DNA of 60,006 nucleotides. Source: Candidatus Colinaster scatohippi. Its GTDB lineage: Bacteria; Bacillota; Clostridia; Lachnospirales; Lachnospiraceae. How positions within the stretch are numbered: position 1 is the first letter of the stretch; every line of letters begins with the position of its first letter. Below the pieces are notes generated by a model that worked only from the letters and a program-made list of their open reading frames with translations, had not been told where the DNA came from and searched no databases. Location: assembly GCA_018064805.1 (NCBI GenBank), contig JAGHUN010000031.1, positions 1-60,006 of the forward strand. Direction: 5' to 3'. The position numbers and the translations under genes are program-made. Positions 8,466 to 10,340 of this stretch are shown piece by piece.

Positions 8466-10340
8466 TCATCTCTTTGAGTATTCAACAAGCTTTTTAATTA
8501 TATAATTAGCGCCAACCTGACCGCTTTTTCCAATATTAAACAGATATTTTTCTCTAATCGCTGCCATTTTCTCAGTCGAGTAATCCTTATCATTAAGCAG
8601 CTTGTCAACTACATCCTTAAGTGTATCAAGCTTATCTACATCAACCGCTATACCAACTTCATTTCTGACAGTTATGTCGAAAGGCTCTATACCAATCTCC
8701 TCATAATCCGGATTCATAACCTTCATAGGAGTATTGATATATAAAGTCGGCTTAAGCGTTGTGAAGGAATATTCATATGCTATTCCCGACCAGTCAGTAA
8801 GCAGAACATCTGCCTCAAAAACAGTACTGTTAGATGAAAAATCCGTCTGCAATACGAAATCTTCACATTCTCTATACTTATCCTTAAGAGCTGCCAGTTT
8901 CTCACCAAAGTGTCTGACATACTGAGGATGCGGACGAAGTGTAACATTATATCCCTTACCAAGCAACTGATCAAGAATCTGCTCAATACATAAGTCAAGC
9001 AGATTATCATTCTGCCATGAGGGGGCAATAAGAATCTCTTTAGGATTGTTTTCCTTTTTGCCTGCCTCTTCATATGCGGCTATCATATTATCAATAAGTC
9101 CATAGCCTGTCTCGACCAGATTTTTTTCCTTAAGACCATAGGTCTTCTCCTGAGCTCTTATTTCCCTGATTGTAAGCTCATTGGGAACAAAAATCGTATC
9201 AAAATTATCAAGAGCATGCTTTCTGTAGCTCAGGTTAACATCACCCATGGCATGGTCCATATAGATATATTCAATATTATCCTGAACCAGCGACTTTTTA
9301 AGATGATAGGTCTGAAGATCCGGCGTTGTCATAACCATTATATCCGCTTCAAGCTTCATCATCAGTACAATCAGCTTATTCTCGCCGATATAATATACTC
9401 TGAATTTATCATTCTGAAGGGCAAATACCTCGTCTGCCGGATCAGATGTAATATAATGAATTACAATATCCGTCCTGCGAAGGATTGTCTCTATTACGTC
9501 CTTGTAATACTTATAGAATCCATTTTTCTCAGAAAAAAATACAATCTGCTTATATCCGTATTTGAAGAATCTTTTATAATCAGCCTTCTCTCTGGCCTGG
9601 TCCTCTTTGGAAACCTTTTTCTTGCTTGCTGCCTGATATTTAAGAACCTCATCCAGTTCCTTTTTACTTTCCTCCAAAGCCTCATAATCGATATACTTCT
9701 TGGGATTAATGAAATAGTTAAGTATCACAAGCTGGGCAACCGACAACAGGTTACCTGCAATCCAGTACAGACCAACACCACCCATTACAAAAAAGCCAAG
9801 ATATAACGACAATCCAACGGAAATTGCCATTGTGGTATACTTATTAGCCTTACTCTGCTCTGACTGAAGGACATTGATTCTGTTCTGTTCAAAGCACATA
9901 TACCATGCAGATATTGCAGCTACTATCGGGATAAGCACCATAAGTCCCCAGGCCTTACCCGGTACAAGCGACAAATCCAGTCCTAAGAAAATAGTATTCT
10001 CCACCTGAAAGCGCTTAAGACCTTCAACCACACCCATAAGTACCACCAGCTGTATGATGATTGGAAGCAAATCCAGCATAGGATGATAGTTCTCTTCCTT
10101 ATACAGTTTATAATTTTCCTCAGAAATCATATCATTATTTCCAAAGTACTTCGCCTTGATATGATTCATCTTCGGATACATTTTTACCATCTTAATGGAA
10201 TTATACTGAACCATAATCGATACAGGTAAAAGAATAATCTTACTTAATACTGTAAATAAAATAATGGCCCAGCCATAGGATGGAAGCATTTTATAACATC
10301 CGGCCATAAGATAGCCGAAGGCGTTTCCAATAAAATTCAT
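8466..10340 (-). CDS. YidC/Oxa1 insertase-like domain fused to CDP-glycerol:glycerophosphotransferase (TagB/TagF-like) domain
   Basis: 624 aa in one uninterrupted frame. About aa 1-230: WAIILFTVLSKIILLPVSIMVQYNSIKMVKMYPKMNHIKAKY...NYKLYKEENYHPMLDLLPIIIQL...GVGLYWIAGNLLSVAQ (YidC-like). About aa 260-624: YMDHAMGDVNLSYRKHALDNFDTIFVPN, ILIAPSWQND, TLRPHPQYV, DVLLTDWSGIAYEYSFTTLKPTLYINTP (TagF-like). SD GGAGAGG. Confidence 0.8.
   Translation of the reverse strand: MNFIGNAFGYLMAGCYKMLPSYGWAIILFTVLSKIILLPVSIMVQYNSIKMVKMYPKMNHIKAKYFGNNDMISEENYKLYKEENYHPMLDLLPIIIQLVVLMGVVEGLKRFQVENTIFLGLDLSLVPGKAWGLMVLIPIVAAISAWYMCFEQNRINVLQSEQSKANKYTTMAISVGLSLYLGFFVMGGVGLYWIAGNLLSVAQLVILNYFINPKKYIDYEALEESKKELDEVLKYQAASKKKVSKEDQAREKADYKRFFKYGYKQIVFFSEKNGFYKYYKDVIETILRRTDIVIHYITSDPADEVFALQNDKFRVYYIGENKLIVLMMKLEADIMVMTTPDLQTYHLKKSLVQDNIEYIYMDHAMGDVNLSYRKHALDNFDTIFVPNELTIREIRAQEKTYGLKEKNLVETGYGLIDNMIAAYEEAGKKENNPKEILIAPSWQNDNLLDLCIEQILDQLLGKGYNVTLRPHPQYVRHFGEKLAALKDKYRECEDFVLQTDFSSNSTVFEADVLLTDWSGIAYEYSFTTLKPTLYINTPMKVMNPDYEEIGIEPFDITVRNEVGIAVDVDKLDTLKDVVDKLLNDKDYSTEKMAAIREKYLFNIGKSGQVGANYIIKKLVEYSKR

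What the first reader, a model, noticed from the sequence alone, without database searches (positions are those of the whole stretch)
8466..10340. YidC/Oxa1-like domain fused to a TagB/TagF-like polyol-phosphate transferase
Seen: one uninterrupted 624-aa frame with a YidC-type multi-TM region (about aa 1-230) followed by a CDP-glycerol glycerophosphotransferase-like GT-B region. Known: YidC inserts membrane proteins; TagB/TagF enzymes are peripheral and use CDP-glycerol or CDP-ribitol. Inference: the YidC fold may be repurposed as a membrane dock or lipid/glycan-presenting groove for polyol-phosphate or related transfer. I cannot tell how widespread this architecture is.
Basis: partly seen in the sequence, partly recalled or inferred. 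Interest (0 to 1): 0.85.

Follow-up and report, generated by a model that had tools for sequence, protein, structure and literature searches.

The report
YidC-fused surface phosphonate transferase
This gene joins a membrane-protein-insertion fold (YidC) to a teichoic-acid-type transferase; it recurs in hundreds of gut Clostridia next to genes that make cytidine-activated aminoethylphosphonate or phosphocholine, so it is probably a missing enzyme that attaches these groups to the cell surface, with the YidC fold put to a new use.

Summary
Confirmed, on the minus strand: window 8466-10340 encodes one 624-aa protein with a YidC/Oxa1 domain (aa 22-208) fused to a Glyphos_transf (TagF-type) domain (aa 264-534). 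It is no artefact: full-length relatives occur in congeners, over 550 stretches of the species-genome collection encode a relative, and both halves keep their diagnostic residues. It is a paralogue of the housekeeping YidC. Neighbouring genes argue against CDP-glycerol/ribitol as the usual donor. Of 60 loci with at least 5 kb on both sides, 34 carry 2-aminoethylphosphonate (AEP) genes (pepM fused to a cytidylyltransferase, ppd, phnW), 9 a LicC-aminotransferase, 5 choline genes and 1 the last two. Here the AEP genes follow at the window edge (phnW 3-386) and on an overlapping contig. Four modules recur in permuted fusions: YidC, the TagF-type transferase, a small YIDP membrane protein, and an LtaS/MCR-like outer-face transferase. 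Best reading: one membrane machine in which the cytosolic domain takes AEP (or phosphocholine/phosphoethanolamine) from its CMP conjugate, the YidC groove holds or passes a lipid-linked intermediate, and the outer enzyme finishes the transfer. Module linkage is shown; chemistry, acceptor and groove role are inferred. I found no paper on it.

The parts
8466..10340 (-). YidC-Glyphos_transf fusion gene, 624 aa (P0001)
   Evidence: single ORF; Pfam/NCBIfam both domains; conserved full length
9705..10340 (-). YidC/Oxa1 half, aa 1-212: amphipathic N-helix, 5 TM core, positively charged cytosolic hairpin; K34 (codon 10239-10241) aligns with the conserved groove Arg of YidC
   Evidence: PF02096 E=2.4e-29; 3wo7 alignment; K/R at this place in 309 of 320 relatives
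8469..9554 (-). TagF-type transferase half, aa 263-624; H363, R469-P-H471, D516-W-S518, E523
   Evidence: PF04464; TagF best fold match; residues invariant or nearly so in 320 relatives; alignment to Cps3D active site
10422..10700 (-). small YIDP membrane protein (likely start at the internal ATG), directly upstream of the fusion gene
   Evidence: same family beside the fusion in 46 of 80 loci, 40 of 60 with full flanks; fused to the transferase or to the sulfatase-like enzyme elsewhere
10751..12415 (-). 554-aa multi-TM protein without a Pfam match; an early DDFDY motif suggests a GT-C-type transferase (own judgement). Part of the cluster, link to the fusion not shown
12461..13462 (-). GT2 of the PgfS/ArnC type (undecaprenyl-phosphate sugar synthase-like). 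Part of the cluster, link to the fusion not shown
3..386 (-). 5' part of phnW (2-aminoethylphosphonate transaminase), cut by the contig end; continues on contig G000:C130 with pepM-cytidylyltransferase, ppd and an HTH-nucleotidyltransferase
   Evidence: 101-base exact overlap and EDKTGLKKNS motif; equivalog matches of PepM and Ppd on C130 and of a PhnW relative
52432..54399 (-). sulfatase-fold membrane enzyme with the LtaS/MCR-like metal and Thr residues; same family as the module fused to YidC elsewhere (42 kb from the fusion here, so membership in the same machine is uncertain)
   Evidence: PF00884; HMM match and catalytic residues

Best explanation
The protein is a membrane-integral, cytosol-facing transferase that takes 2-aminoethylphosphonate (here) from CMP-AEP and puts it on a membrane-held acceptor. 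Relatives would do the same with phosphocholine or phosphoethanolamine. Steps: (1) PepM, Ppd and PhnW make AEP and a cytidylyltransferase makes CMP-AEP [genes shown; chemistry by homology]. (2) The TagF-type half, with its two catalytic histidines, moves AEP from CMP to the acceptor [residues shown, reaction inferred]. (3) The half works in one membrane assembly with the YIDP protein and an LtaS/MCR-like Thr transferase that faces outward [shown only as gene linkage and permuted fusions]. (4) The YidC groove, which keeps its cationic residue, holds or scrambles the lipid or lipid-linked intermediate between the inner and the outer enzyme, so that AEP ends on a surface glycan [inferred]. Confidence is for steps 1-3 together with some active role of the groove.
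For: AEP genes at 34 of 60 loci with full flanks, other cytidylyl-donor genes at 15 more. PepM, Ppd and PhnW exceed NCBIfam equivalog cut-offs. H363, R469, H471, D516, W517 and S518 are kept in 320 of 320 relatives; R469/H471 and S518 align with Cps3D catalytic positions. YidC groove K/R in 309 of 320. Permuted fusions: YidC-Glyphos-Sulf (L062, L068, L102, L108, L120), Sulf-YidC-Glyphos (L122), YidC-Sulf beside YIDP-Glyphos (L160, L161, L162, L165, L182), YIDP-Sulf beside YidC-Glyphos (L168). Best fold matches of the YidC-Sulf protein are MCR-1 and LtaP, enzymes that take head groups from lipids. E. coli YidC scrambles phospholipids in vitro (PMC10491306). Identity of the two halves co-varies, r=0.94.
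Against: No biochemistry. Acceptor unknown. 11 of 60 loci with full flanks show no donor genes and 17 of 60 no sulfatase module within 10 kb. Most PepM-cytidylyltransferase clusters of the order (18 of 25) lack this system. G013 (96% complete) shows two fusions and no separate YidC, so an insertase role is not excluded everywhere. The YidC-Sulf model has modest confidence (pLDDT 67.5). In this window the sulfatase gene is 42 kb away.
Confidence: 0.5

Rival explanations
1. Anchor only: the TagF-type half decorates an undecaprenyl-linked glycan directly at the cytosolic face before export; the YidC half merely holds it at the membrane, and the sulfatase-like enzyme does an unrelated step.
For: TagF, TagB and LicD enzymes work this way by established knowledge; YIDP-Glyphos relatives manage with a short membrane segment in place of YidC.
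Against: A mere anchor needs no YidC fold: the cationic groove residue and fusion-specific invariants (N47, Y85, G103, C149, Q152, Q162, Y180, P213) are kept; where YIDP replaces YidC on the transferase, YidC reappears on the outer enzyme next door.
Confidence: 0.27
2. Dedicated insertase: the YidC half inserts or assembles its own partners (YIDP protein, GT-C or sulfatase-like enzymes) and is fused to the transferase for co-localisation.
For: The fold and groove charge are retained; small membrane proteins are classical YidC clients and YIDP lies directly beside the gene in most loci.
Against: Nearly all genomes of the order have a separate ordinary YidC; YIDP is sometimes covalently fused to the other modules, odd for a client.
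Confidence: 0.12
3. Teichoic-acid-like polymerase or primase that uses CDP-glycerol or CDP-ribitol; the AEP genes belong to another branch of the cluster.
For: The Pfam family is named for this activity; the divergent copy at L032 has a TagD-like neighbour.
Against: Donor genes beside the fusion are AEP, choline or LicC-aminotransferase in 49 of 60 loci with full flanks; the second Ser and the Asp of the TagF donor site are changed (mostly G, N or S at 519, E at 523).
Confidence: 0.09
4. Assembly join or frameshift that fuses two genes by accident.
For: The genome is a fragmented assembly, 130 contigs, 74.7% complete.
Against: The same junction occurs in independent assemblies of hundreds of species, including records not marked as metagenome assemblies such as Lachnospiraceae bacterium NC2008 and A4.
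Confidence: 0.01

Closest known systems
YidC/Oxa1/Alb3 membrane insertases (SpoIIIJ, YidC2)
   Same: Pfam 60KD_IMP, TIGR03592, 5-TM fold with TM 0.75 to 3wo7, cationic residue in TM1
   Different: Paralogue of the ordinary YidC found in nearly all genomes of the order, no lipoprotein signal apparent, carries a 360-aa transferase, has its own invariants, lies among surface-glycan genes
TagF/TagB/TarL and TagF-like capsule polymerases (PF04464)
   Same: GT-B fold, both catalytic His positions, Asp-x-Ser phosphate site
   Different: Known members are peripheral or on multi-enzyme chains and use CDP-polyols; this one is on YidC and lies with CMP-AEP/CDP-choline genes; donor-site Ser and Asp changed
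Pnt (phosphonyl tailoring) pathway of Rice et al. 2019, PMC6697681
   Same: PepM fused to a PF01467 cytidylyltransferase plus a MobA/LicC-like nucleotidyltransferase, Ppd and PhnW
   Different: That paper points to LicD-like phosphotransferases or glycosyltransferases nearby and leaves later steps open; it does not mention YidC
LicD phosphocholine transferases
   Same: Same logical place after LicA/LicC, donor CDP-choline
   Different: Unrelated fold (nucleotidyltransferase superfamily), no YidC
LtaS/LtaP, EptA/MCR-1 head-group transferases
   Same: Fold and metal/Thr residues of the partner module
   Different: Known members work alone and take the group from ordinary phospholipids; here they are linked or fused to YidC, YIDP and a cytosolic transferase

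Membership tests
YidC/Oxa1 family | Match to family profiles over the curated cut-off | tested here: met
   PF02096 102.9 bits against 35; TIGR03592 94.1 against 84.3
YidC/Oxa1 family | YidC fold of the core | tested here: met
   Foldseek to 3wo7, TM 0.75 by target, rmsd 2.6
YidC/Oxa1 family | Strictly conserved positive charge in the TM1 groove | tested here: met
   K34 aligned to the groove Arg; K or R in 309 of 320, S in 9; Lys works in place of Arg in E. coli YidC (PMC8920935)
YidC/Oxa1 family | Inserts membrane proteins | not testable with these tools
   needs complementation of a yidC/spoIIIJ mutant
TagF-type Glyphos_transf (PF04464) | Profile match over the cut-off and TagF fold | tested here: met
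   46 bits against 22.1; 3l7k best fold match
TagF-type Glyphos_transf (PF04464) | Two catalytic histidines (TagF H444, H584) | tested here: met
   H471 aligned to Cps3D H609; H363 assigned to the H444 place by motif, not by direct alignment; both in 320 of 320
TagF-type Glyphos_transf (PF04464) | CDP-glycerol site residues S, S, D (Cps3D 647, 648, 652) | tested here: not met
   S518 kept; 519 is G/N/S/A; E523 in place of D. Argues against filing it as a CDP-glycerol enzyme, not against the fold family
TagF-type Glyphos_transf (PF04464) | Transfers polyol phosphate from CDP-polyol | not testable with these tools
   needs enzyme assay
Pnt (AEP tailoring) pathway | PEP mutase with EDKXXXXXNS, fused or near a cytidylyltransferase | tested here: met
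   EDKTGLKKNS; PEP_mutase equivalog 409 bits with an N-terminal cytidylyltransferase domain, on contig C130 that overlaps the window end by 101 bases
Pnt (AEP tailoring) pathway | AEP present on the surface glycan or lipid | not testable with these tools
   needs 31P NMR or mass spectrometry

The most novel reading that the evidence does not exclude
A YidC/Oxa1 fold has become the transmembrane core of a two-sided phosphonate/phospho-alcohol relay: a cytosolic TagF-type enzyme charges a membrane lipid from CMP-AEP, CDP-choline or CDP-ethanolamine, the YidC groove scrambles that lipid across the membrane, and an LtaS/MCR-like enzyme transfers the head group to surface glycans. This would be an Oxa1-family protein whose physiological substrate is a lipid, and a new way to make zwitterionic surfaces in gut Clostridia.
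Probability: 0.3. Interest if true: 0.93.

Novelty: new variant of a known kind. Interest (0 to 1): 0.76.

Why it matters
Rice et al. 2019 call the phosphonyl-tailoring steps after C-P bond formation enigmatic and characterise only the cytidylyl activation; this gives a concrete, testable candidate for the transfer step in a large group of gut bacteria. It gives Oxa1/YidC proteins a possible role outside protein insertion, which meets the recent finding that YidC scrambles lipids in vitro. Hundreds of these proteins seem to be named simply 'membrane protein insertase YidC' in databases, which hides a surface-decoration system likely to affect host recognition (AEP and phosphocholine are known zwitterionic surface groups).

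Tried and rejected
Assembly artefact: rejected by relatives. Only YidC of its genome: an ordinary 320-460 aa YidC is present in nearly all genomes of the order; G000 itself is 74.7% complete, so its absence there says little. Literature search for YidC fused to a glycerophosphotransferase or linked to phosphonates gave no paper on it; no paper naming a CMP-AEP transferase was found. Direct sequence match of the C-half alone to PDB failed; profile A3 and the fold comparison were needed. A combined alignment of the Sulf-YidC-Glyphos protein misaligned the sulfatase rows, so the YidC-Sulf protein was modelled instead. Defence-system library: no match. My first donor tally counted LicC-AT cross-hits of plain nucleotidyltransferases and was redone with a length rule.

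Full report
What is there. The frame at 8466-10340 is on the minus strand: 624 aa, ATG start, no interruption. Pfam gives 60KD_IMP at aa 22-208 (E=2.4e-29) and Glyphos_transf at aa 264-534 (E=4.7e-12); NCBIfam gives the YidC/Oxa1 C-terminal model above its cut-off. The AlphaFold model (pLDDT 85, pTM 0.62) matches TagF with its C-terminal half and B. halodurans YidC with its N-terminal half. The YidC half has the five-helix core and the positively charged cytosolic hairpin. Since YidC cores end in the cytosol, the transferase half should be cytosolic (inference from fold and charge).

It is not an artefact and not rare. In the genus, 11 of the 19 congeners searched carry the full fusion, one more has it split over two contigs, and a genome of another family of the order has it at 37% identity. 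More than 200 protein clusters with this architecture were listed from two searches. Sources name them 'membrane protein insertase YidC'. In an even sample of 201 genomes of the phylum only the window's own genome has it; in 128 genomes of the order 12 have it. Nearly every genome of that sample also has an ordinary YidC of 320-460 aa, so the fusion is a paralogue. Exceptions are noted: the window's genome and some incomplete congeners show no ordinary YidC, and G013 (96% complete) shows only two fusions.

Both halves are under constraint. Over 320 fused relatives, H363, R469, P470, H471, D516, W517 and S518 are invariant, and the TM1 groove position 34 is K or R in 309. Published work says YidC homologues strictly conserve this charge and that Lys can replace Arg (PMC8920935). 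H471 aligns with catalytic H609 of Cps3D and S518 with S647, while S648 and D652 of that enzyme become G/N/S/A and E. H363 is assigned to the H444 place by motif only. The YidC half has fusion-specific invariants (N47, Y85, G103, C149, Q152, Q162, Y180, P213) and has lost a proline (place 175) kept in all 25 ordinary YidCs compared. Pairwise identities of the two halves correlate at 0.94, as expected for one unit inherited together.

The donor. Right behind the window's edge lies AEP synthesis. ORF 3-386(-) is the start of phnW; contig C130 overlaps the window end by 101 exact bases and continues phnW, then pepM fused to a cytidylyltransferase (motif EDKTGLKKNS), ppd and an HTH-nucleotidyltransferase. 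PepM and Ppd from C130, and a PhnW relative from another locus, exceed their NCBIfam equivalog cut-offs. The join is by overlap and by synteny with congeners (L054), not by reads. Among 60 loci with at least 5 kb on both sides, 34 have AEP genes, 9 a LicC-like nucleotidyltransferase fused to an aminotransferase whose best model is CobD threonine-phosphate decarboxylase (so perhaps a CDP-ethanolamine route; inference), 5 choline genes (choline kinase, LicC-like enzyme, BCCT transporter), 1 the last two, and 11 none. A gene present once in a 2.5-Mb genome would fall within 10 kb by chance in about 1% of cases. The donor type follows the tree of the fusion but has switched about 12 times, as expected for an enzyme class that adapts to different cytidylyl donors. 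Rice et al. (PMC6697681) showed CMP-AEP formation and left the later steps open. In reverse, of 25 PepM-cytidylyltransferase clusters in the order, 7 carry a YidC-linked system within the stretch examined (five YidC-Glyphos: G000, G442, G433, G118, G087; two YidC-Sulf with YIDP-Glyphos: G076, G378), so it is one solution among several.

The machine. Two further gene families travel with the fusion: a small membrane protein with a YIDP motif (46 of 80 loci, nearly always adjacent) and a sulfatase-fold membrane enzyme (43 of 60 loci with full flanks). These four modules occur in permuted fusions: YidC-Glyphos-Sulf in five loci of one clade; Sulf-YidC-Glyphos in L122, another clade; YidC-Sulf next to YIDP-Glyphos in four genomes (L160, L161 and L162, L165, L182); YIDP-Sulf next to YidC-Glyphos in L168. 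In L161 the YidC-Sulf/YIDP-Glyphos pair sits directly on the AEP operon. Several rearrangements that keep the same four parts together are strong evidence for one assembly. The sulfatase-type module keeps Asp, Thr, His and Asp-His in 99-100% of 79 sequences; the best fold matches of a YidC-Sulf protein are MCR-1 and LtaP (model confidence modest). Those enzymes take head groups from membrane lipids on the outer face (established knowledge).

Mechanism. I favour a relay: cytosolic transfer of AEP from CMP-AEP to a membrane acceptor, passage or presentation by the YidC groove, and final transfer outside by the Thr enzyme. The finding that E. coli YidC and other Oxa1 proteins scramble phospholipids in vitro (PMC10491306) makes the middle step chemically reasonable. 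What is shown: architecture, conservation, neighbourhood and permuted fusions. What is inferred: the reaction, the acceptor, the order of steps and the groove's role. The main rival is that YidC is only an anchor.

Novelty. No paper in the library describes the fusion. All parts are known families, so I rate it a new variant of a known kind, with a categorically new reading at about 0.3.

Noticed in passing
L154 1..2163 (-), L149, L157-L159, L161-L163, L165, L182: A second recurrent fusion, YidC with an LtaS/MCR-like sulfatase-fold domain (842-938 aa), often beside a YIDP-Glyphos_transf gene; no paper on it was met.
   Followed up: yes
L122 1636..5238 (+): A single 1200-aa protein Sulf-YidC-Glyphos, the reverse order of the YidC-Glyphos-Sulf proteins (1241-1420 aa).
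   Followed up: yes
window 10422-10715 (-): Family of tiny YIDP membrane proteins without a Pfam or NCBIfam model above cut-off, linked to phosphotransferase genes and sometimes fused to them.
   Followed up: partly
L058 11883-13694 (+) and relatives: LicC-like nucleotidyltransferase fused to a CobD-like PLP enzyme; may make CDP-ethanolamine from phosphoserine.
   Followed up: partly
window 13423-20917 (-): Odd-sugar genes: glucose-1-phosphate cytidylyltransferase, split transketolase (14212-15995), aldo-keto reductase, a citrate-lyase-ligase-like 562-aa protein, FrhB-like protein and pyruvyl transferase.
   Followed up: no
window 10751-12415, 37135-38811, 45372-46877, 54396-56081 (-): Four large proteins without a Pfam match above cut-off; the first is multi-TM with an early DDFDY motif, so GT-C-like.
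   Followed up: no
G013: A 96% complete congener with two YidC-Glyphos fusions (70% and 48% identical to the window's) and no separate YidC found; the divergent copy has a TagD-like neighbour.
   Followed up: partly
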